Source of the DNA: Cordylochernes scorpioides
Taxonomy: Eukaryota > Arthropoda > Arachnida > Pseudoscorpiones > Chernetidae
NCBI GenBank assembly: GCA_030710605.1
Contig: CP092869.1
Location: forward strand, 9,971,263 to 10,035,262
Length of the DNA: 64,000 nt
Reading direction: 5' to 3'
Within the stretch, counting starts at the first letter, position 1; every line of letters begins with the position of its first letter. The translations under genes were made by a program, and so were the position numbers. Positions 4,511 to 62,885 of the stretch are shown piece by piece. A model generated the notes under the pieces. That model had not been told where the DNA came from and ran no database searches. It saw nothing but the letters and a program-made list of their open reading frames with translations.

Positions 4511-7500
4511 ACACGCGCACATACAGCTTTATTAAGACCAACGGTCTTATATAGATTCACCACAGTTAAAAGTTGAAAATCTAATAATGACAAACATGCT
4601 CTTAATAAATCACTGAATCAAATAAATAACTAATTAATCAAATCACTGAATAACTACAGATTCACCACAGATTCCACACTCGCCTTTTCAGTGATACGCT
4701 AACCTATGCACGGTGGATTCTGTGGCCACTGAACATGCGTCGAACCTGAAGCTGTTAGGTTCTGTGCTGCCTGGAATATAGGAGTTCCAACTATGCTTCC
4801 TTTCTGTGGTGAATCTGTATAAGACCGGTGGTCTCAATAAAGCTGTATGTGTGTATTCTGTTATAACATCGGCCCTGGAGGCCATTGGGTTCTGTGTTGC
4901 CTGGAGTATAGGAGTTCCAAATATGCTTCCTTTCTGTTGTGAATCTATATAAGACCGGTGGTCTCAATAAAGCTGTATGTGTGTATTCTGTTATAACGTC
5001 GGACCTGGAGACTGTTGTTGGGTTCTGTGTTGCCTGGAGTATAGGAGTTCCATCTATGCTTCCTTTCTGTTGTGAATCTATATAAGACCGGTGGTCTCAA
5101 TAAAGCTGTATGTGTGTATTCTGTTATAACGTCGGACCTGGAGACTGTTGTTGGGTTCTGTGTTGCCTGGAGTATAGGAGTTCCATCTATGCTTCCTTTC
5201 TGTTGTGAATCTATATAAGACCGGTGGTCTCAATAAAGCTGTATGTGTGTATTCTGTTATAACGTCGGACCTGGAGACTGTTGTTGGGTTCTGTGTTGCC
5301 TGGAGTATAGGAGTTTCATCTATGCTTCCTTTCTGTTGTGAATCTATATAAGACCGCTGGTCTCAATAAAGCTCTATGTGTGTATTCTGTTATAACGTCG
5401 GACCTGGAGACTGTTGTTGGGTTCTGTGTTGCCTGGAGTATAGGAGTTCCATCTATGCTTCCTTTCTGTTGTGAATCTATATAAAACCGGTGGTCTCAAT
5501 AAAGCTGTATGTGTGTATTCTGTTATAACGTCGGACCTGGAGACTGTTGTTGGGTTCTGTGTTGCCTGGAGTATAGGAGTTCCATCTATGCTTCCTTTCT
5601 GTTGTGAATCTATATAAGACCGGTGGTCTCAATAAAGCTGTATGTGTGTATTCTGTTATAACGTCGGACCTGGAGACTGTTGTTGGGTTCTGTGTTGCCT
5701 GGAGTATAGGAGTTCCATCTATGCTTCCTTTCTGTTGTGAATCTATATAAGACCGGTGGTCTCAATAAAGCTGTATGTGTGTATTCTGTTATAACGTCGG
5801 ACCTGGAGACTGTTGTTGGGTTCTGTGTTGCCTGGAGTATAGGAGTTCCATCTATGCTTCCTTTCTGTTGTGAATCTATATAAGACCGGTGGTCTCAATA
5901 AAGCTGTATGTGTGTATTCTGTTATAACGTCGGACCTGGAGACTGTTGTTGGGTTCTGTGTTGCCTGGAGTATAGGAGTTCCATTTATGCTTCCTTTCTG
6001 TTGTGAATCTATATAAGACCGGTGGTCTCAATAAAGCTGTATGTGTGTATTCTGTTATAACGTCGGACCTGGAGACTGTTGTTGGGTTCTGTGTTGCCTG
6101 GAGTATAGGAGTTCCATCTATGCTTCCTTTCTGTTGTGAATCTATATAAGACCGGTGGTCTCAATAAAGCTGTATGTGTGTATTCTGTTATAACGTCAGA
6201 CCTGGAGACTGTTGTTGGGTTCTGTGTTGCCTGGAGTATAGGAGTTCCATCTATGCTTCCTTTCTGTTGTGAATCTATATAAGACCGGTGGTCTCAATAA
6301 AGCTGTATGTGTGTATTCTGTTATAACGTCAGACCTGGAGACTGTTGTTGGGTTCTGTGTTGCCTGGAGTATAGGAGTTCCATCTATGCTTCCTTTCTGT
6401 GGTGAATCTGTATAAGACCGGTGGTCTCAATAAAGCTGTATGTGTGTATTCTGTTATAACATCGGACCTGGAGGCCATTGGGTTCTGTGCTGCCTGGAGT
6501 ATAGGAGTTCCATCTATGATTCCTCTTCCTGTGGTGAATCTATATAAGACCGGTGGTCTCAATAAAGCTGTATGTGTGTATTCTGTTATAACGTCGGACC
6601 TGGAGGCTGTTGTTAGGTTCTGTGTTGCCTGGAGTATAGGAGTTCCATCTATGCTTCCTTTCTGTTGTGAATCTATATAAGACCGGTGGTCTCAATAAAG
6701 CTGTATGTGTGTATTCTGTTATAACGTCGGACCTGGAGGCTGTTGTTGGGTTCTGTGTTGCCTGGAGTATAGGAGTTCCAACTATGCTTCCTTTCTGTTG
6801 TGAATCTATATAAGACCGGTGGTCTCAATAAAGCTGTATGTGTGTATTCTGTTATAACGTCGGACCTGGAGACTGTTGTTGGGTTCTGTGTTGACTGGAG
6901 TATAGGAGCTCTATCTATGCTTCCTTCCTGTGGTGAATCTATATAAGACCGATGGTCTTAATAAAGCTGTATGTGTGTATTCTGTTATAACGTCGGACCT
7001 GGAGACTGTTGTTAGGTTCTGTGCTGCCTGGAGTATAGGAGTTCCATCTATGCTTCCTCTTCCTGTGGTGAATCTATATAAGACCGATGGTCTTAATAAA
7101 GCTGTATGTGTGTATTCTGTTATAACATCGGACCTGGAGGCCATTGGGTTCTGTGTTGCCTGGAGTATAGGAGTTCCATCTATGCTTCCTCTTCCTGTGG
7201 TGAATCTATATAAGACCGATGGTCTTAATAAAGCTGTATGTGTGTATTCTGTTATAACGTCGGACCTGGAGACTGTTGTTGGGTTCTGTGCTGCCTGGAG
7301 TATAGGAGCTCCATCTATGATTCCTCTTCCTGTGGTGAATCTATATAAGACCGATGGTCTTAATAAAGCTGTATGTGTGTATTCTGTTATAACGTCGGAC
7401 CTGGAGACTGTTGTTGGGTTCTGTGCTGCCTGGAGTATAGGAGCTCCATCTATGATTCCTCTTTCTGTTGTGAATCTATATAAGACCGGTGGTCTCAATA

Positions 7501-8316
7501 AAGCTGTATGTGTGTATTCTGTTATAACATCGGACCTGGAGGCCATTGGGTTCTGTGCTGCCTGGAGTATAGGAGCTCCATCTATGATTCCTCTTCCTGT
7601 GGTGAATCTATATAAGACCGGTGGTCTTAATAAAGCTGTATGTGTGTATTCTGTTATAACGTCGGACCTGGAGACTGTTGTTGGGTTCTGTGCTGCCTGG
7701 AGTATAGGAGTTCCATCTATGCTTCCTTTCTGTTGTGAATATATATAAGACCGGTGGTCTCAATAAAGCTGTATGTGTGTATTCTGTTATAACGTCGGAC
7801 CTGGAGGCTGTTGTTAGGTTCTGTGTTGCCTGGAGTATAGGAGTTCCATCTATGCTTCCTTTCTGTTGTGAATCTATATAAGACCGGTGGTCTCAATAAA
7901 GCTGTATGTGTGTATTCTGTTATAACGTCGGACCTGGAGACTGTTGTTGGGTTCTGTGTTGCCTGGAGTATAGGAGTTCCATCTATGCTTCCTTTCTGTG
8001 GTGAATCTGTATAAGACCGGTGGTCTCAATAAAGCTGTATGTGTGTATTCTGTTATAACGTCGGACCTGGAGACTGTTGTTGGGTTCTGTGCTGCCTGGA
8101 GTATGGGAGTTCCATCTATGCTTCCTTTCTGTGGTGAATCTGTATAAGACCGGTGGTCTCAATAAAGCTGTATGTGTGTATTCTGTTATAACGTCGGACC
8201 TGGAGACTGTTGTTGGGTTCTTTGTTGCCTGGAGTATAGGAGCTCCATCTATGATTCCTCTTCCTGTGGTGAATCTGTATAAGACCGGTGGTCTCAATAA
8301 AGCTGTATGTGTGTGA
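4511..8316. mobile_element. foldback-type element containing a 133-bp minisatellite
   Basis: Imperfect inverted termini are present. The left end reads ACACGCGCACATACAGC then TTTATTAAGACC, and the right end is the complement of CACACACATACAGC then TTTATTGAGACC. A 10-bp target duplication is TTATATTATT at 4501-4510 and TTATATAATT at 8317-8326. The duplicate element keeps TTATATTATT on its right side. An uninterrupted paralogous target is at 18177-18243 (one TGATATTATT). The interior is 26 periods of a tandem unit. No transposase is encoded. The 10-bp duplication would fit Mutator-like or FB-like elements. Confidence 0.8.
4780..8315 (+). repeat. 133-bp minisatellite array, 26 periods
   Basis: The anchor AAGACC recurs at 4821, 4951, 5084, 5217, then every 133 bp to 6414, then at 6546, 6679, 6812, 6945, 7080, 7212, 7347, 7482, 7614, 7747, 7880, 8013, 8146 and 8281. 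Periods are mostly 133, with 130, 132 and 135 variants. Each unit holds a TATATAAG motif, an AATAAA 20 bp downstream and a GACCGGTGGTC near-palindrome. Units at 5084-6281 are almost identical to one another. Long open frames at 6930-7748 (+) and 6911-7546 (-) are products of the repeat. Confidence 0.95.
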
Positions 8317-12224: not shown

Positions 12225-12460
12225 TAGGAATTAGTATAAGGCAATAACACGATATCTCTATACAGCAAATGAAGACATTAAAACGCGAATGTTTTTTTCA
12301 CAAATAAAACAAACTTCTACTGTCCTTACTGTGATGAAAAAATATTGGAAGGGCTTGGTTCATCAATGGTGAAACATTTCAGCGGTTTCGCCAATTTAAT
12401 CTACCAGACAGTTTCTCTTAGAGTTATAATAATTGTTATATATTTATGTTTCTCTCCTAT
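12225..12460 (-). mobile_element. H2 element (strand-permuted hammerhead family), decayed copy
   Basis: In minus orientation the copy contains the ribozyme-like core (12347-12413), then CAGTAAGGACAGTAG, then an ATAAGACGCG-like stretch, and ends near GATATCGTGTTATTGCC. The same layout is seen in the better copies at 43576-43818 and 48905-49125. Confidence 0.7.
12347..12413 (-). ncRNA. strand-permuted hammerhead-like motif, decayed
   Basis: Stem I (UGGU with ACCA), stem II (UUGGC with ACCAA, 4 of 5) and GAAA are kept, but CUGAUGA reads UUGAUGA, stem III has two mismatches and the fourth helix is lost. It is probably inactive. Confidence 0.5.
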
Positions 12461-14220: not shown

Positions 14221-14320
14221 ATGATAGGGCATGGCTCATCAGTGGTAAGCCCTCCCAACGGTTTCGCCAGTTTAATCTACCATACCTCTCTACTATTGGA
14301 TTATGCTCTTGGTCTTATAT
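14221..14320 (-). mobile_element. H2 element fragment
   Basis: Only the ribozyme-like core and a little of the 5' flank remain. The core is described separately. Confidence 0.6.
14223..14289 (-). ncRNA. strand-permuted hammerhead-like motif (family H2)
   Basis: CUGAUGA, GAAA, the A15.1-U16.1 pair and cleavage base A17 are all kept. Stem I is UGGU/ACCA, stem II CUGGC/GCCAU (4 of 5 pairs) and stem III AGAGGU/ACCGUU with one mismatch. The fourth helix GGGAGGG pairs only partly (CCCU). Confidence 0.6.
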
Positions 14321-18243: not shown

Positions 18244-18487
18244 TAATGCATTAGCGCGCCATCTGTTATTAAAATTCACAACTATTATAGACGCGTAAGA
18301 TTCTTTTAAAAAATAAACAATTTCTACTGTCCTTAATGCAATGGAATAATTAATGGAAGGGCCTGGGAGGGTTCACCACTGATGAGCTAGGCCCTCCCAT
18401 TATTTTTTTCATAGCAGTAAGGGCAGTAGAAATTGTTTATTTTTGAAAACAATCATACGCGTCTATAATAGTTTCGAATTTTGACAA
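18244..18487. mobile_element. palindromic derivative of the H2 element
   Basis: The arms ACTATTATAGACGCGTAAGA and the mirror TACGCGTCTATAATAGT enclose mirrored CAATTTCTACTGTCCTTA segments. The centre keeps GGGAGGGTTCACCACTGATG and a CCCTCCC but lacks the GAAA strand, so the ribozyme core cannot form. It begins with GCGCGCCATCTGTTA, the AGATGGCG-type end. Confidence 0.65.
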
Positions 18488-32170: not shown

Positions 32171-33052
32171 AGTGTGAACAACCTCTGTCTACTTCAGAAT
32201 AACAATCGACCAGCGACATTAAAGACTTTCCACTTTCTTAAATTTTGTTTATTAGAGTATTTCAAATGTCTTGGCACACATACAAATTCGGATAAAACCA
32301 ACCTGTATCTACGAATTTAAGCGCTTAGTGCAAATATCTCAAAAATGCCCTTTAATGCAATTATTGAAAAAAGGAAGAAGGTTTCTATATTACAACTTTA
32401 ATAGCATCCTTCTACACAGAATCTAACAAAATATGTAAAAATGTTTCATTTTTACTCAATTTCAATATCTTATTTTAAATATAAACAATTCCGAAATATG
32501 AAATATTCTCAAAAGCTCTGCGTTTGAATGAAAATTTAAAATCACAAACACTGTTTTTGTTGAAAAATCTAAAGAGAAAATATTCGATTCTAAAATTATT
32601 TCAATTATAAAAGGAAATTCGTAGAGGTTTGGCCAACATGCACGCTACATCAACACAAATTACATGGAAGAAGTTGTTTGGAAATAAAAAAAGAAATTGA
32701 AGTAGAAAGATTCCACGGAGGCAAGAGCCAATTTTCGGTTCTAACCAGAAGACGCCTTTAATTATTTCCATAAAAGAGGAAATTGAATTTATTCCAAGAT
32801 TCCATAGTGACAGGGAACTTTTTATTTTCAATTTTCTTCTCTATTTAATTTGATATTTCAAATTGATAATTTTTATACATGAATGGTTTTTCTGAATACT
32901 AAAGCGGAACTATAAAATAGGAAAGCAACAAGTGTGTATATAGAGCACTAACTTTTCGATAATTCTATATAGTTTTAAAATAAATATGTAATTTTACGGT
33001 CCTAAAAGCTTATGTCTATAGTTTTTCTTGAATAATATTTCTGTGATTCCAT
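32171..33052. other. AT-rich spacer
   Basis: Imperfect inverted segments occur around 32670-32830 (AGATTCCACGG / CCAAGATTCCATAG), but no gene or named family is seen. Confidence 0.4.
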
Positions 33053-33250
33053 CCTTCAGTGTAGCATATATAAGTATAATGATCCAATACAGTATTAGAG
33101 CTCTAAAGAGGCGGTCTGGTAGATTAAATAGGTGAAACCGCTGGGAGAGTTCACCACTGATTAGCCAAGCCCTCCCAATATAATATTTTAACCTCAGTAA
33201 AGACAGTAGAAGTATTTTTTATGTTTAAAATAAACTTGCGTCATGTATCT
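33053..33250 (+). mobile_element. H2 element
   Basis: 5' part CTTCAGTGTAGCATATATAA (TATA-like), CCAATACAGTATTAGAGC, the ribozyme-like core, then CAGTAAAGACAGTAG and a truncated 3' part. There is no open reading frame. Confidence 0.7.
33110..33176 (+). ncRNA. strand-permuted hammerhead-like motif (family H2)
   Basis: Stem III GCGGU/ACCGC, cleavage base C17 (33116), stem I UGGU/ACCA, GAAA and helix C GGGAGAG/CCCUCCC (one mismatch) are present. CUGAUGA reads CUGAUUA (G8 changed), so this copy should be inactive. Confidence 0.6.
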
Positions 33251-36690: not shown

Positions 36691-39074
36691 TTAAGAGAAA
36701 TTATAGAATGTTGATTTCATAAATGGATATTTCCATTTATTTTTTTTAAAATATTTTATAATTGATATACTGTTGAAATATTTTACTTGTTTGATACTAA
36801 ATTTGTTTTTAATAAATTCCATGTTTAAATTTTTAACATCTTCTATGAAATTATCTAATATATTATTTATTCTATAAAATCTTAGAAACTGACCATAATA
36901 TATACCTTTACAGCAATTTAATGATATATTAGAATTCATATTACAGTATTTTATAATATTGAAATTATAATTACTCTTTTTATTATAAACTCTAACAGCA
37001 CTATTTGTAAGGTCTATATTCAAGTCTAAAAAGTTAACTTTTTTGTTTCTATAAATTTTTTCATTGTTCTTAAGTTTCAAGTATTTAGGATATATTTCAG
37101 GTATTAATTTTTTAAACTGTGGATTATTAAATATTATTATGTCATCTACATATCGGAATATTTGCCAATTAATATTATTTTGTAGAAAGTATTCTCTTTC
37201 GTACCAGAACAATATTAGATTTGTTAATAACGGACTAGAAGAAGTTCCCATGGGAACGCCTTCTGATTGAATATATATTTTATTTTTAAATTCTATATAG
37301 TTAAAATTTAAAAATGTTTCAGTAGAGTTTTTGCTGTTTTAAGATCTAATTTAAATGTTTTATATCTGTTATGAATAATTTTAATGTAGAAAGTTTTGTC
37401 ATTAATGAATTCATTAAATAAATTGGTTATTTTATTATTTAGATCTCTTAAATTTATTTTAGAATATAGGTCCTCAAAGTCAAATGTGTGTACTGTTTCA
37501 ATGTTTGTCCAATTGTTCATTAAATAATTAATGATTTTTTTATTTGAGTCGATAAATTTATAATTATATTTATTAGTTAATTTATTTATAATAAATTGTA
37601 GTGTTGAAGCTAATTGTATATCAATATTTTTTATGACTGAATTTATACCAGATGTGATTGTTCTGAAAGAAATAGGTTTTTTGTGTAGTTTAGGAATTAT
37701 ATAGAACTTTGGTATGTTTGGATTTTTGTGGTTATTATAAATTTTTAGTGAATTTTCAACATTTTTGATGTCTTTTTTGATTTTTGTGCCTGTAGTTCTA
37801 GCAAAAGTGTATTTATGATTATTATCAATTTCCTTTTTTAGTATATCGTGGTATAGATTTTTACAAATTAAAGATAAATTATTGGAACATTTATCTATAG
37901 GAGTGATAATATAGTCCTTCTGTAAATTAATTATATTTTCTTTAAAAGAAGGAATGTCTGAATTGGGTGTTGTGTATTTAAGTGTATTATTATAATAATT
38001 TATAATTTCCTTTTTAATATTATGTTTCCATTCCAGAAAAGTAAATTCTGGAATACTGTATTTTATACTAGTTTTATTTATGAAAATATCTATATCTTTT
38101 AATATAGATTTAATTGTATTATTATAATTGTGTTTAATTTGAGGTATATATTTATACCCTTTATTTAAAATTTCTTGATATTCTGGATTTAAAAAAGAAA
38201 AATTGCTAGTTAATATATGACCTGAGAACTTATATTTATCAATATAGTTGTTGCAATTACATTTAATTTTTTTAAAATTTGCCAAATTATTAATAAATTG
38301 GTTATAATTGCAAACTAAATTACCTATATTTTTATTGTATCTCCAGATTGTTTTGAAATTTAAATTTTTTATAGGGAAAAGATTATTGATGATTTGGTTA
38401 TTAAAAATATCATTAAATTTAATATGATTAAATAAATTGTTATTAAATTTAATGATAATATTAATGTTATTAGTAGCTTGTTTAATTTTTCTGTATTTAA
38501 AGATGTCGTGTGTGATATCTATTAATCTGTTAGTCAGATTATGAATTTTAATATATTCTATGAGTTTGATAAATTTATTATTATTTAGTTTAAATAATGT
38601 TTTAATAAATTTATCGACGAAGTTGTTAGTGTACATTTGTTTTGGGTCCAGTAATTCTTCAAATTCAATGTAACCTAATTTATTTGTAGTTTTACCTCTA
38701 GTTTTATTAGGTTTAGTTTTAAATTCATTTTTTTTGTATTTGCAACTGATTTCATAGGTTGAAATTTCTTCTGTTTGTGGTTTGTATGTGTAGTTTAATT
38801 CGTCGTTAAGTCCATAAGGGAATAATGTGTTGTGTTTATAAATGTAGTTGTTTTCTAATAATAGTCGTTGTTTTTTGTTTTGACATATGTCTAGTATTTC
38901 TATCTTAAAGTTGTTAAAAGTATGTAATTGATTGTGTTCTTTCATATTTATATTACCAATTGATTTTTTAGCGTGGTTTCTATGTAGGTTTATTCGTATA
39001 TTTAATGGATTACAAGTTTGTCCTATATATGATAGTTGACAAATTTGGCATGTTAATTTATAAATAGTATTCAC
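36691..39074 (-). pseudogene. Penelope-like GIY-YIG endonuclease / reverse transcriptase, one frameshift
   Basis: It encodes the retroelement's single polyprotein. Residues 1-95 form an N-terminal GIY-YIG domain (IYKLTCQICQLSYIGQT, with Arg in IRINLHR and Glu in LLLENN), with a C-x2-C between the two halves. The N-terminal position points to the Naiad/Chlamys group rather than classical Penelope with a C-terminal nuclease. A region of about 300 residues follows, then ITPIDKCSNN (place of the usual D-K-G), PKLHKKP, SFRTITSG, FDFEDLYS (motif A), GVPMGTSSSPLLTNL (motif B), YVDDIII (catalytic motif C) and NFLDLNI. A 1-nt loss near 37318 breaks the frame just before motif B, giving pieces 37308-39074 and 36691-37251. 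The catalytic residues are otherwise present. Confidence 0.85.
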
Positions 39075-39868: not shown

Positions 39869-41908
39869 ATGAAATCAGTTGCAAATACAAAAAAAATGAA
39901 TTTAAAAACTAAACCTAATAAAACTAGAGGTAAAACTACAAATAAATTAGGTTACATTGAATTTGAAAAATTACTGGACCCAAAACAAATGTACACTAAC
40001 AACTTCGTCGATAAATTTATTAAAACATTATTTAAACTAAATAATAATAAATTTATCAAACTCATAGAATATATTAAAATTCATAATCTGACTAACAGAT
40101 TAATAGATATCACACACGACATCTTTAAATACAGAAAAATTAAACAAGCTACTAATAACATTAATATTATCATTAAATTTAATAACAATTTATTTAATCA
40201 TATTAAATTTAATGATATTTTTAATAACCAAATCATCAATAATCTTTTCCCTATAAAAAATTTAAATTTCAAAACAATCTGGAGATACAATAAAAATATA
40301 GGTAATTTAGTTTGCAATTATAACCAATTTATTAATAATTTGGCAAATTTTAAAAAAATTAAATGTAATTGCAACAACTATATTGATAAATATAAGTTCT
40401 CAGGTCATATATTAACTAGCAATTTTTCTTTTTTAAATCCAGAATATCAAGAAATTTTAAATAAAGGGTATAAATATATACCTCAAATTAAACACAATTA
40501 TAATAATACAATTAAATCTATATTAAAAGATATAGATATTTTCATAAATAAAACTAGTATAAAATACAGTATTCCAGAATTTACTTTTCTGGAATGGAAA
40601 CATAATATTAAAAAGGAAATTATAAATTATTATAATAATACACTTAAATACACAAAACCCAATTCAGACATTCCTTCTTTTAAAGAAAATATAATTAATT
40701 TACAGAAGGACTATATTATCACTCCTATAGATAAATGTTCCAATAATTTATCTTTAATTTGTAAAAATCTATACCACGATATACTAAAAAAGGAAATTGA
40801 TAATAATCATAAATACACTTTTGCTAGAACTACAGGCACAAAAATCAAAAAAGACATCAAAAATGTTGAAAATTCACTAAAAATTTATAATAACCACAAA
40901 AATCCAAACATACCAAAGTTCTATATAATTCCTAAACTACACAAAAAACCTATTTCTTTCAGAACAATCACATCTGGTATAAATTCAGTCATAAAAAATA
41001 TTGATATACAATTAGCTTCAACACTACAATTTATTATAAATAAATTAACTAATAAATATAATTATAAATTTATCGACTCAAATAAAAAAAATCATTAATT
41101 ATTTAATGAACAATTGGACAAACATTGAAACAGTACACACATTTGACTTTGAGGACCTATATTCTAAAATAAATTTAAGAGATCTAAATAATAAAATAAC
41201 CAATTTATTTAATGAATTCATTAATGACAAAACTTTCTACATTAAAATTATTCATAACAGATATAAAACATTTAAATTAGATCTTAAAACAGCAAAAACT
41301 CTACTGGAAACATTTTTAAATTTTAACTATATAGAATTTAAAAATAAAATATATATTCAATCAGAAGGCGTTCCCATGGAACTTCTTCTAGTCCGTTATT
41401 AGCAAATCTAATATTGTTCTGGTACGAAAGAGAATACTTTCTACAAAATAATATTAATTGGCAAATATTCCGATATGTAGATGAAATAATAATATTTAAT
41501 AATCCACAGTTTAAAAAATTAATACCTGAAATATATCCTAAATACTTGAAACTTAAGAACAATGAAAAAATTTATAGAAACAAAAAAGTTAACTTTTTAG
41601 ACTTGAATATAGACCTTACAAATAGTGCTGTTAGAGTTTATAATAAAAAGAGTAATTATAATTTCAATATTATAAAATACTGTAATATGAATTCTAATAT
41701 ATCATTAAATTGCTGTAAAGGTATATATTATGGTCAGTTTCTAAGATTTTATAGAATAAATAATATATTAGATAATTTCATAGAAGATGTTAAAAATTTA
41801 AACATGGAATTTATTAAAAACAAATTTAGTATCAAACAAGTAAAATATTTCAACAGTATATCAATTATAAAATATTTTAAAAAAATAAATGGAAATATCC
41901 ATTTATGA
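39869..41908 (+). pseudogene. second Penelope-like RT copy, 5'-truncated, frameshifted
   Basis: It starts at the residue equivalent to about 105 of the other copy, so the GIY-YIG domain is absent. One extra A in the run at about 41086 shifts the frame before motif A, and a lost G at about 41381 shifts it inside motif B. The open pieces are 39869-41098, 41106-41402 and 41414-41908. The catalytic motif reads YVDE instead of YVDD at about 41478, so this copy could not be active even without the shifts. Elsewhere it is nearly identical to the minus copy. Confidence 0.85.
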
Positions 41909-43575: not shown

Positions 43576-43818
43576 TTTAACACAAAGCAATAACACGCCA
43601 TCTATACATATAATATGAAAGAATTTAAGAGCATTAATGTTTCTTTTATACATAATACAAACTTCTACTGTTCTTACTGCGATGAAAAAAATATATTCGG
43701 AGGGCTCTTGGCTCATCAGTGGTGAACCCTCCCAGCGGTTTCGCCAATTTAATACACCAGACCGCTTGTCAGAGCTCTAATACTGTATTGGACGATTCTG
43801 CTTATATACGCAGCACTG
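43576..43818 (-). mobile_element. H2 element, best complete copy
   Basis: Minus sense, 5' to 3': GCTGCGTATATAAGCAGAAT (TATA-like), CCAATACAGTATTAGAGCTC, the ribozyme core (43766-43699), ATATTTTTTTCATCGCAGTA, GAACAGTAGAAGTTTGTATT, and the end ATAGATGGCGTGTTATTGC. About 240 bp, non-coding. The terminal AGATGGCG resembles the end of the H1 hammerhead elements. Confidence 0.75.
43699..43766 (-). ncRNA. strand-permuted hammerhead motif, all core rules met
   Basis: Minus sense: stem III strand AGCGGU (43766-43761), C17 (43760), stem I strand UGGUG (43759-43755), linker, stem II strand UUGGC (43747-43743), GAA (43742-43740), stem III strand ACCGCU (43739-43734), helix C strand GGGAGGG (43733-43727), UU, stem I strand CACCA (43724-43720), CUGAUGA (43719-43713), stem II strand GCCAA (43712-43708), GAG, helix C strand CCCUCC (43704-43699). 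Stem III 6/6, stem I 5/5, stem II 5/5 with G10.1-C11.1, and GUC cleavage triplet. Expected cut: between 43760 and 43759. Confidence 0.75.
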
Positions 43819-44247
43819 TTTAAATTGTCTAATGGGAATATTATATCAGTTATATCTTTGAATATAAGAATTACCACAGTTATCCATATAAATGTGTAAC
43901 GATCTAAGGAACCATGAGAGATACGATAGAAAGAGTGGATATTAAAGTATTAAAATATATTAAACTATTAATACAAAGGTTTATTATATTAAATTTATTA
44001 TTAGAAGAGATATCTTTAATATATATTATCATAAAGATAAATTATAAAAATGAACGTTTCAGGAAAATATACAGAGAAATTGTCAGTTTAATCTCCTTTT
44101 ATCAACATAACAAGTAATATTTTCATACACCTCTCTCTTTCCTTTTGATTGATTTAAACTGATTTATTACAACGTGCATATAAGATTATATAAGGTTAAA
44201 TACAGAACAAATATAAATATGATTATATAATGATAAATATAACATAA

Positions 44248-44440: not shown

Positions 44441-44796
44441 AAAAATAGATATAAATAGATTAAATTATTGTTAAATATACATATATATATAAATTTATAC
44501 AAGGTCTTCATTGGTGGAGCCCACCGCGCGAAAGACTCCGCCACCGATGGACTGCGAGAGTTCACAGAGTGGGCAGGTCTAGGTGTTGGCTGGCGTTGAT
44601 GGCTGATGAGAGATTTGTCTATTTGTATACCCAGATCTACAGTTCAGCAGTAAAAAAAAATGAGAATATTGTTTAAAAAGAAGAGATGATTATAAGATAC
44701 GCAGTGGTTGTTTTGTTTCAACACTAAGTTTTTGTATCGTTGAGTACCTATATAGGCAAAATCTTTCAATAAAATATATTTTTTATGATACATTTG

Positions 44797-44990
44797 CGCG
44801 CCATCTGTTATCAAAATTCGAAACTATTATAGACGCGTATGATTCTGTTTTTTAAATAAACAATTCCTACTGTCCTTACTGAAATGGAAAAATTAAATGG
44901 AGGGCCTGGCTCATCAGTAGTGAACCCTCCCAGCAGTTTCGCCAGTTTAATCTACCATACCGCTGTTATATTGCATTTTTGGATCTTCCT
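44797..44990 (-). mobile_element. H2 element variant
   Basis: Core at 44899-44964. The 3' part (minus sense) is AACAATTCCTAC-complement, ATACGCGTCTATAATAGT and the end AACAGATGGCGCGCAAATG. It defines a subfamily with a longer 3' end, shared with 18244 and 60760. Confidence 0.7.
44899..44964 (-). ncRNA. strand-permuted hammerhead motif with compensatory changes
   Basis: Stem III AGCGGU/ACUGCU (one G-U), A17 (44958), stem I UGGU/ACUA (one G-U), stem II CUGGC/GCCAG (5 of 5; distal pair C-G where the 43.7-kb copy has U-A), GAAA, CUGAUGA, helix C GGGAGGG/CCCUCC. All core bases are intact. Confidence 0.75.
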
Positions 44991-45689
44991 TTCATAGTGA
45001 TACTGATGTTAGACTCTTGGAATGGGTATTTTAGATGAACAATGGACATAAGCTTTGAGGACAGTAGAATTACATACATTCATAAATATATAATATGCTT
45101 CGAGCATAGCTCTTCAGCAAATATCAAATTGTTTTTTGGTGGGATTGTAGAACATTATTTTCCAATCTATATATGGATAGAGAAAAATAAAAAGATATAA
45201 GCGAGCTATACATATTTAACATTATAACTTATTCACACCCACGGTTTCCTTTTCGATATAGACAATTCCCAACTGGCCCCCTATTCCTTAATTTGATGCA
45301 ACATATATCTAAGAAAAATCTAATTATCATAATTTCTGATGATATTCTATTCAATTTCTTGAAATAAATATCAATATATTCACTACATATAATATATTCT
45401 AAGAATATTTTTCAGTTTTATTTCATTAGTTGTAGAAATGGATATTCTATAAATTCATACCGAATATTAAAGATACAATGTTTTTAATGTCAATTTAACT
45501 TAGAGCAAATAACCCACTTATTTGAATAAAATTTTATAATGAGAGCATACATTCATACACACACATAAATGTAGTCTATTTTTAATTAAGTAGACAAAGA
45601 CAATTTTCGATAATTCAATAAAACAATTTCTTGAATCATTATTAAAATACATTAGGCCTCCAGGGAAAAGTTCTTTTTTTTCCAGACAA
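44991..45689. other. AT-rich spacer
   Basis: No gene seen. 45648-45690 is a CCTCCAGGGAAA-family end (TTAGGCCTCCAGGGAAAAG). Confidence 0.4.
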
Positions 45690-48904: not shown

Positions 48905-49125
48905 TTGATATCTAGAGCTCAGTGTAGCATATATAAGCAGAATTGCACAATACATTTTTATTTTTTTTAGAGCTCTAACGAAGTGGTCTAATGAATTAAA
49001 TAAGCGAAACCGCTGGGAGGGTTAACCACTGATGAGACAAGCCTCCCAATATATTTTTCATCGCAGTATGGTCAGTGAAAATTTTATTTATTTGTGAAAA
49101 GAAACATTCGCGTCTTAATGTTTTC
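48905..49125 (+). mobile_element. H2 element
   Basis: TCAGTGTAGCATATATAAGC (TATA-like), AGAGCTCTAACGAAG, the core, then ATATTTTTCATCGCAGTATG and AACATTCGCGTCTTAATG. The 3' AGATGGCG end is missing. Confidence 0.7.
48982..49047 (+). ncRNA. strand-permuted hammerhead-like motif (family H2), partly decayed
   Basis: Stem III AGUGGU/ACCGCU (one wobble), C17 (48988), GAAA, CUGAUGA and helix C GGGAGGG/CCUCCC are kept. Stem I (UAAU/ACCA) and stem II (AAGC/GACAA) have mismatches. Confidence 0.55.
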
Positions 49126-49390
49126 ATTCTTTAAATATATAATAAAATTTTTACAAAAATATATTTTTTATTGTGGAAAAACAAGCTTTCCAGAAAAGAC
49201 ACTTCTACTGTTTTATCAAAATTCTATAAGAATAAATTTGGACTATTTATTAGAATCAAACATCTACTTGTACGTGAGCGGGCATACACAATAGTTATGT
49301 TCTTTTAATCACTACAAACCTATCAACAATATATTTGCGCGTCTGAGAGAAATAATATAAATTCATTAATACAAATTATAATACACTTTA
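49126..49390. other. AT-rich spacer
   Basis: No recognisable feature. Confidence 0.35.
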
Positions 49391-60759: not shown

Positions 60760-60877
60760 TACTACGATGCACTAGCGCGCCATCTGTTATCAAATTACAA
60801 AACTATTTTAGAGGCGTAATATTCTTTAAAAAAAAAAAGAATATTACGCCTCTAAAATAGTTTTGTAATAGATTTTT
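60760..60877. mobile_element. hairpin insertion private to duplicate 2 (H2-related)
   Basis: Arms CAAAACTATTTTAGAGGCGT and mirror (about 38 bp) around an A-run, preceded by TGCACTAGCGCGCCATCTG, the AGATGGCG-type end. An ATAGATTT motif stands on both sides. Duplicate 1 has no insertion at about 10600. Confidence 0.8.
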
Positions 60878-62470: not shown

Positions 62471-62659
62471 TATAGTATTTTATTCTAATTATAAGAAATA
62501 GAAAAAACATTCAGACAATGCATAAACACTTCCTTTTAAATGATTATCATTAATTCAAAGAAAATATATATTTTCCATGATTGAAAACTTTTTAAATTGT
62601 CAAAAGCTTTTCATAAACATTCGAATTAATTCCAATAAATAATCAAAGAGATAGGAATT

Positions 62660-62885
62660 AGTATAAGGCAATAACACGATATCTATATACATCAAATGAA
62701 AACATTAAGATGTGAATGTTTCTTTCACAAATAAATCAAACTTCTACTGTCCTTACTGCGATGAGAAAATATTGGGAGGGATTGAATTATCAGTGGTGAA
62801 ACATTTCAGCGGTTTTGCTAATTTAATCTACCAGACCGTTTCTCTTAGAGATCTAATGAATTGTTATATATTTATGTTTCTCTCC
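62660..62885 (-). mobile_element. H2 element, decayed copy
   Basis: Twin of 12225-12460. Its core is at 62774-62840. Confidence 0.65.
62774..62840 (-). ncRNA. strand-permuted hammerhead-like motif, decayed
   Basis: Stem I UGGU/ACCA and most of stem III are kept, but GAAA reads AAAA, CUGAUGA reads CUGAUAA, and helix C is lost on one side (GAAAUGU), as in the twin. Confidence 0.5.

What the first reader, a model, noticed from the sequence alone, without database searches (positions are those of the whole stretch)
43699..43766. Hammerhead ribozyme core with its three strands joined in the reverse cyclic order (dispersed family H2)
The copy has every hammerhead core element: CUGAUGA, GAAA, A15.1-U16.1, a GUC cleavage triplet, stem I UGGUG/CACCA, stem II UUGGC/GCCAA with G10.1-C11.1, and stem III AGCGGU/ACCGCU. 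Natural types I, II and III are rotations of one order: (stem I-CUGANGA-stem II), (stem II-GAAA-stem III), (stem III-UH-stem I). Here the linear order is (III-UH-I), (II-GAAA-III), (I-CUGANGA-II), the opposite cycle, so no rotation or tandem array gives the canonical connection. Helices I, II and III cross one another, and a fourth helix GGGAGGG/CCCUCC closes the knot. I know of no natural hammerhead described with this connectivity. It would be missed by standard type I-III covariance models.
Basis: partly seen in the sequence, partly recalled or inferred. Interest (0 to 1): 0.96.

Follow-up and report, generated by a model that had tools for sequence, protein, structure and literature searches.

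The report
Rearranged self-cutting ribozyme in jumping element
A repeat scattered through a large eukaryotic genome carries what looks like a self-cutting RNA (hammerhead ribozyme) whose three parts are strung together in an unusual order; that order was published in 2023 from environmental RNA, and here it sits inside what looks like a Penelope-type jumping element.

Summary
The minus strand of 43766-43699 carries every hammerhead core element in the order site block, GAAA block, CUGAUGA block, plus a fourth helix. A descriptor for all six block orders finds two window hits, both in this order, and none in 40 shuffles. The headline claim fails: this connectivity was published in 2023 as the type-SGC hammerhead and tested in vitro (PMC10085705). 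What looks new is the setting. That paper reports no type-SGC from genomes of known organisms; here it lies in a 371-375 bp unit dispersed through a 2.62-Gb eukaryotic genome. Two diverged subfamilies differ at 4 of 67 aligned ribozyme positions, while other stretches of the unit are 37-83% identical. Copies are 5'-truncated, in tandem or head-to-head, often with target duplications, and have two favoured 3' ends about 33 nt apart. All 23 classifiable head-to-head pairs, of 37, have one of each end: the Penelope "tail" signature. Best reading: a retrozyme-like, Penelope-mobilised element that processes its RNA with a type-SGC hammerhead. Self-cleavage is untested; covariation within this genome is thin; one amplified lineage has a damaged stem II.

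The parts
43577..43818 (-). 5'-truncated copy of the ~373-nt retroelement unit (unit position -59 to 182; long 3' end)
43699..43766 (-). type-SGC hammerhead: blocks S, G, C in that 5'-to-3' order
43761..43766 (-). stem III strand AGCGGU (block S); last U = U16.1
43759..43760 (-). predicted cleavage between C17 (43760) and 43759
   Evidence: position by analogy with the type-SGC ribozymes of PMC10085705; not tested
43755..43759 (-). stem I strand UGGUG (block S)
43743..43747 (-). stem II strand UUGGC (block G)
43739..43742 (-). GAA + A15.1
43734..43739 (-). stem III strand ACCGCU (block G)
43727..43732 (-). fourth helix, strand GGAGGG
43720..43724 (-). stem I strand CACCA (block C)
43713..43719 (-). 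CUGAUGA (block C)
43708..43712 (-). stem II strand GCCAA (block C)
43699..43704 (-). fourth helix, strand CCCUCC
43802..43808 (-). TATATAA, TATA-box-like, 48 nt upstream of the predicted cleavage site; subfamily B has CTATAAAAGG at the aligned place
   Evidence: promoter role inferred
44796..45132 (-). second unit copy, subfamily B, ribozyme at 44898-44966
48919..49141 (+). older unit copy, lineage D (stem II strand GACAA)
32986..33241 (+). older unit copy
12229..12431 (-). older unit copy, lineage C; core and helix 4 decayed
62656..62857 (-). older unit copy, lineage C; core and helix 4 decayed
14223..14302 (-). short subfamily-B copy covering the ribozyme
18252..18474 (.). head-to-head pair of partial units, one arm with the long 3' end and one with the short
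60763..60869 (.). head-to-head pair of fragments near the 3' ends (long and short end)

Best explanation
The motif is a type-SGC (non-circularly permuted) hammerhead ribozyme that is the conserved processing signal of a short non-autonomous retroelement, mobilised by Penelope-like element (PLE) machinery. Proposed cycle: a TATA-type promoter inside each ~373-nt unit transcribes the strand carrying the ribozyme; tandem transcripts self-cleave between the equivalents of 43760 and 43759 into unit-length, possibly circular, RNA; a PLE reverse transcriptase starts at one of two internal sites, about 140-159 or 170-189 nt 3' of the cleavage position, on nicked target DNA, often once on each DNA strand, leaving head-to-head, 5'-truncated copies, many flanked by 12-16 nt duplications. 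Shown here: motif, unit, truncation, two favoured 3' ends, paired use of the ends, target duplications, stronger conservation of the ribozyme than of most of the unit. Inferred: promoter, self-cleavage, circular RNA, PLE as supplier of the enzyme.
For: All core elements in SGC order, 0 in 40 shuffles. Same four-helix anatomy as the tested type-SGC ribozymes. A subfamily A and a subfamily B copy differ over the ribozyme at 4 of 67 aligned positions plus a 2-nt gap: H17 (C/A), a distal stem I pair, both sides of one stem II pair (U-A to C-G), linker length; across the whole unit, 40-column identity peaks at 0.975 inside the ribozyme and is 0.375-0.825 elsewhere (one copy each). In 62 distinct copies H17 is C 44, A 17, U 1, G 0; U4, A6, A13, A15.1 invariant. 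Stem cells paired 91.1%, against 20.7-54.3% with partners slid. Tandem units 371-416 bp apart. Two favoured 3' ends: 37 of 59 A rows and 39 of 66 B rows. Of 37 head-to-head pairs, 23 have both arms at these ends and all 23 have one of each; L075 and L076 look like one insertion counted twice. Flanking repeats of 12 nt or more at 21 of 82 insertions, against 1.2 by re-pairing. The Penelope tail on one of the inverted pLTRs, and two RT start sites as its cause, are described in PMC3846280 and PMC11167929 (passages).
Against: No cleavage data. Covariation rests mainly on one exchange (stem II U-A 44 rows, C-G 16); the number of pairs changed on both sides is not above shuffles (4 against 3.1) and further pair types are not either (15 against 15.6). 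Stem I pair 5 is unpaired in 38 of 62 rows. The apparent double compensation in stem I of L091 is not confirmed: its halves occur unpaired in L096 and L100. Lineage D has stem II strand GACAA, a G-A mismatch, in 11 of 18 slices plus the window copy (the two queries that picked these slices carried GACAA) and was still amplified. Helix 4 has all six pairs in 42 of 62 rows; several copies changed its 5' strand without compensation. Linker columns vary even less than core columns (9 of 558 against 14 of 682 cells), so low change is not specific to the core. Copy 5' ends are not concentrated at the cleavage site: 9 of 126 rows within 11 nt, two of them breaks inside arrays (uniform expectation about 8). 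The PLE in the window has no similarity to the subfamily A unit.
Confidence: 0.74

Rival explanations
1. A canonical (nested) hammerhead forms between neighbouring units, S and C of one unit with G of the next, in tandem transcripts; the local crossing order is a by-product.
For: Tandem units exist, up to eight ribozyme sites in L066, and S1-C1-G2 is a legal type III order (naming).
Against: It needs a stem II loop of roughly 370 nt and gives no reason for helix 4 or for the ribozyme being kept as one compact block of about 68 nt. Local type-SGC RNAs of similar size cleave in vitro.
Confidence: 0.08
2. The conserved block is a structured site for the reverse transcriptase or host factors and does not cleave (any more).
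For: Other islands are conserved too (CAGTAAGG.CAGTAGAA; AGATGGCGC). In subfamily B six 5' ends from five loci fall at unit positions 60-63, the 3' edge of helix 4 (small sample). The hammerhead of the anole Penelope element was not needed for insertion in vitro. Lineage D spread with a stem II mismatch.
Against: The positions hammerhead catalysis needs are kept, with freedom where hammerheads have it: H17 any base but G, linker length.
Confidence: 0.15
3. Chance resemblance, or conservation of a 54-codon reading frame on the opposite strand.
For: A 54-codon open frame can be read antisense to the ribozyme in several subfamily A copies (read by eye; no coding test was run).
Against: Shuffles give no hits. 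A common 2-nt indel (GAG versus G linker) breaks that frame, also between tandem neighbours of one array.
Confidence: 0.03

Closest known systems
Type-SGC hammerhead ribozyme / HRIMA-1 motif (Eckert et al. 2023, PMC10085705)
   Same: Block order S-G-C; same conserved nucleotides; stems I, II, III plus a helix joining the other sides of stems I and II; helix 4 next to stem III with 0-1 nt between, a connection the paper reports in a few cases.
   Different: The paper reports no RNA from genomes of known organisms except a bacterial type-GCS candidate, and almost all its motifs are exclusive to metatranscriptomes (section 17). This one is genomic, eukaryotic and part of a dispersed retroelement. 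Linker between stems I and II 5-7 nt against typically three. Their alignments (supplement) were not seen.
Metazoan retrozymes with type I hammerheads (Cervera & de la Pena 2020, PMC7229834)
   Same: Tandem repeats of 150-450 bp, GC under 50% (units here 0.371 and 0.337), target duplications, one hammerhead per unit, PLEs proposed as movers.
   Different: The ribozyme is type SGC, not type I; circular RNA not shown here; head-to-head Penelope-like copies are prominent.
Penelope-like elements (pLTR, tail, hammerhead)
   Same: Head-to-head inverted repeats, optional 31-bp tail on one of them, target duplications, TATA-like box in the repeat (PMC3846280); two internal RT start sites (PMC11167929).
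   Different: The unit is too short to encode a reverse transcriptase and the subfamily A unit has no similarity to 20 loci of the PLE found in the window. In the papers read, PLE hammerheads are type I.

Membership tests
Type-SGC hammerhead ribozyme | Blocks in order S, G, C | tested here: met
Type-SGC hammerhead ribozyme | CUGANGA, GAA, A15.1-U16.1, H17 not G | tested here: met
   window copy; 62 distinct copies (11 core columns: 14 of 682 cells deviate; H17 never G)
Type-SGC hammerhead ribozyme | Stems I, II, III | tested here: met
   95.4% (III), 88.2% (I), 90.0% (II) of cells paired over 62 rows; lineage D breaks a stem II pair
Type-SGC hammerhead ribozyme | Fourth helix joining stems I and II | tested here: met
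   MFE helix in the window copy; all six pairs in 42 of 62 copies
Type-SGC hammerhead ribozyme | Covariation in the stems | tested here: inconclusive
   21 doubly changed cells against 7.4 in shuffles, but 16 are one inherited stem II exchange; pairs changed on both sides 4 against 3.1; weakens the stem I case
Type-SGC hammerhead ribozyme | Site-specific self-cleavage | not testable with these tools
   needs a transcription assay
Animal retrozyme | Short tandem units with one hammerhead each | tested here: met
   371-416 bp periods
Animal retrozyme | Type I hammerhead | tested here: not met
   order is SGC; the descriptor found no other block order in 297,828 bases of loci
Animal retrozyme | Circular and linear unit-length RNA | not testable with these tools
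   no RNA data available
Penelope-like element | Two alternative 3' ends 30-40 nt apart, tail on one of two inverted arms | tested here: met
Penelope-like element | Target-site duplication and head-to-head repeats | tested here: met
   (duplications seen at 21 of 82 insertions)
Penelope-like element | Own RT and GIY-YIG coding region between repeats | tested here: not met
   the 371-375 nt unit is too short and the subfamily A unit does not match 20 PLE loci; a larger autonomous relative was not searched for systematically

The most novel reading that the evidence does not exclude
A eukaryotic retroelement family in which a working non-circularly permuted (type-SGC) hammerhead has taken the place that type I hammerheads hold in Penelope elements and animal retrozymes, so that the same job in the same kind of element is done with opposite strand order; the type-SGC RNAs reported from metatranscriptomes may then have relatives, or sources, in eukaryotic genomes.
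Probability: 0.5. Interest if true: 0.82.

Novelty: new variant of a known kind. Interest (0 to 1): 0.64.

Why it matters
If true, non-circular permutation of a ribozyme is not a curiosity of unknown viroid-like RNAs but is carried by a retroelement dispersed through a large eukaryotic genome. It would give a genomic, searchable source of type-SGC ribozymes and a natural comparison (type I versus type SGC in the same class of element) for asking how a hammerhead can change strand order. It also ties retrozyme-like repeats to Penelope machinery by a specific mark, the paired use of two reverse-transcription start sites.

Tried and rejected
Considered and dropped. (1) Unknown topology: dropped after PMC10085705. 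(2) Antisense protein: the frame is broken by a common 2-nt indel. (3) The unit as terminal repeat of the PLE in the window: no similarity (subfamily A unit only). (4) Copies starting at the cleavage site as proof of cleaved templates: not seen (the loci were chosen to span the site, which limits this test). (5) L091 as a stem I compensatory subfamily: eight further slices do not support it. (6) A separate subfamily from L016:1430-1570: eight slices of its 40 scored hits look like A/C. (7) Relatives elsewhere: exact patterns gave 0 stretches in viral contigs and in genome contigs; exact patterns miss diverged relatives. (8) Literature on type-SGC in genomes: searches list only PMC10085705 as describing such hammerheads; one search also lists a superposition-method paper (PMC11472068, not read) holding the phrase 'non-circular permutation'; listings showed 20 of 23 and 20 of 36 papers; preprints and most subscription papers are not held. 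(9) Organism: not identified. (10) Exact copy count by whole-genome pattern: not answered, not tried again.

Full report
Observation. Searches confirm the motif at the stated coordinates on the minus strand: AGCGGU-C-UGGUG (block S), UUGGC-GAA-ACCGCU (block G), CACCA-CUGAUGA-GCCAA (block C), and GGAGGG/CCCUCC as a fourth helix. The order is S, G, C. A pairing descriptor for all six block orders (at least 4 bp in each stem, summed 15 or 13 bp) finds two window hits, both SGC, and none in 40 dinucleotide shuffles at each threshold. Rfam at gathering threshold gives only a tRNA in the window; relaxed, on 43640-43860, a 12.8-bit piece of Hammerhead_II against a 37-bit cut-off and a snoRNA piece. 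The MFE fold shows stem III and helix 4 as the main nested helices (-26.1 kcal/mol, z -2.20, 8 of 200 shuffles as good); stems I and II would be the pseudoknot.

Not a new topology. Eckert, Friedrich, Weinberg and Weinberg 2023 (PMC10085705) describe this order as type SGC. I saw the abstract and outline, passages, sections 7, 13, 14, 15, 16, 17 and part 1 of section 18; supplements and figures were not seen. They report 583 predicted type-SGC sequences; five tested ones cleaved at the predicted site, a sixth lacking two nucleotides at that site did not; in one (SGC-3) breaking stem I, II, III or the stem I-II helix stopped cleavage and re-pairing restored it. [quoted passage not shown] The library search for 'type-SGC' with 'hammerhead' returned only this paper.

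The host unit. The window lies in a 2.62-Gb, 24-contig genome; GC is 0.302 in the window. Forty scored copies, of 1,567 first-look candidates, match the 101-nt query at 96-100%. Tandem neighbours define a unit: 373-375 bp in L012, L016 and L027, 371 bp for subfamily B in L065 and L069, and eight ribozyme sites with spacings of 386-416 in L066. Units A and B, one copy each, are diverged relatives: 40-column identity peaks at 0.975 inside the ribozyme and is 0.375 to 0.825 elsewhere, windows overlapping the ribozyme edges included. Over the whole ribozyme an A and a B copy differ at 4 of 67 aligned positions plus a 2-nt gap. Other conserved islands are a TATA-like box, CAGTAAGG.CAGTAGAA and AGATGGCGC.

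Ribozyme conservation. From the loci held I took 137 non-overlapping matches spanning the ribozyme; 103 remained after dropping those with identical flanks, giving 62 distinct sequences (alignment A1). They come from best-scoring hits and so lean towards intact copies; slices fetched later (L096-L111) are not in A1. H17 is C 44, A 17, U 1, never G. Non-consensus cells: 11 core columns 14 of 682, 30 stem columns 144 of 1,860, 9 linker columns 9 of 558, 7 columns of the helix 4 strand 33 of 434; 39 of 62 pass an intactness test (all core bases, at least 5 of 6, 4 of 5 and 4 of 5 pairs in III, I, II). Pair counts: 91.1% of cells paired; 21 doubly changed cells against 7.4 +/- 2.0 in shuffles, but 4 pairs changed on both sides against 3.1 and 15 further pair types against 15.6. 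Sixteen of the 21 are the stem II exchange U-A to C-G that marks subfamily B. Stem I pair 5 is unpaired in 38 of 62 rows. L091 looked like a double compensation in stem I, but further slices show the two halves separately and unpaired (L096, L100). Helix 4 has six of six pairs in 42 of 62 rows. Lineage D carries GACAA in stem II, a G-A mismatch, in 11 of 18 slices and in the window copy; the queries that found those slices carried it too. So covariation inside this genome is weak, and an amplified lineage has a damaged stem II.

How it moves. In ribozyme-strand coordinates (position 1 just 3' of the predicted cut) copy 3' ends have two clusters: in A 145-159 (19 rows) and 180-189 (18 rows) of 59 rows, in B 135-149 (23) and 170-179 (16) of 66 rows; the rest lie elsewhere, some at locus edges or array breaks. 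5' ends are scattered, with 9 of 126 rows within 11 nt of the cleavage site, about what a uniform spread gives. The ribozyme strand therefore behaves as the sense strand of a 5'-truncating retroelement. Of 82 insertion clusters, 21 have flanking repeats of at least 12 nt (20 of 12-16 nt, one of 31), against 1.2 when flanks are re-paired at random (L075 and L076 look like one insertion). Of 37 head-to-head pairs, 23 have both arms at recognised ends, and all 23 combine one short and one long end (12 LS, 11 SL, no SS, no LL; again L075 and L076 are both counted); the other 14 have at least one arm ending elsewhere. The class limits were set, and a few ends (L061, window 18252) lie close to them. 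[quoted passage not shown] The same work found that hammerhead mutants still insert in vitro, so cleavage may serve another step.

Comparison. Short tandem hammerhead repeats of animals are known as retrozymes, with type I hammerheads, and PLEs were proposed as their movers (PMC7229834, abstract and sections 13 and 17). The present unit works like a retrozyme but fails the type I criterion. The PLE in the window (36691-39074 minus, 39869-41908 plus; 74 scored genome matches at 99-100%) shows no similarity to the subfamily A unit in 20 loci, so it is only a candidate helper.

Verdict. Motif real; topology known since 2023; a dispersed eukaryotic retroelement carrying it appears new within the searches named in Tried and rejected. 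Activity is inferred. The organism was not identified.

Noticed in passing
36691-39074 (-) and 39869-41908 (+): Head-to-head pair of Penelope-like ORFs with a GIY-YIG-looking N-terminus (IYKLTC...LSYIGQT; recognised from memory, no Pfam support; RVT_1 only weakly, E 0.0033, for 36691-37251). 74 scored matches at 99-100% genome-wide, 26,756 first-look candidates, some copies about 4.27 kb apart.
   Followed up: partly
L066-L068 (G000:C8, about 52.0 Mb): Tandem array of subfamily B units, eight ribozyme sites in L066, with an A-rich stretch of varying length inside the unit (spacings 383-416).
   Followed up: no
head-to-head unit pairs, 23 of 37: One arm uses the short and the other the long 3' end in every classifiable pair, suggesting that an insertion uses both RT start sites once, one per DNA strand.
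   Followed up: partly
unit positions 25-26, 60-63 and 236-247: 5' truncation points recur: 5 rows at 25-26, 6 at 60-63 (B, just 3' of helix 4), 15 at 236-247 (3' of a GAGC..GCTC hairpin seen by eye), of 126 rows; may be reverse-transcriptase stops at RNA structure. Not tested statistically.
   Followed up: partly
window 34726 (+) and 28078 (-): Two copies of another repeat with CACCACGCTGATGAGGGCCAACAGC; CTGATGA present, but the hammerhead descriptor does not hit there.
   Followed up: no
window 6911-7748: Repetitive stretch with long open frames on both strands.
   Followed up: no
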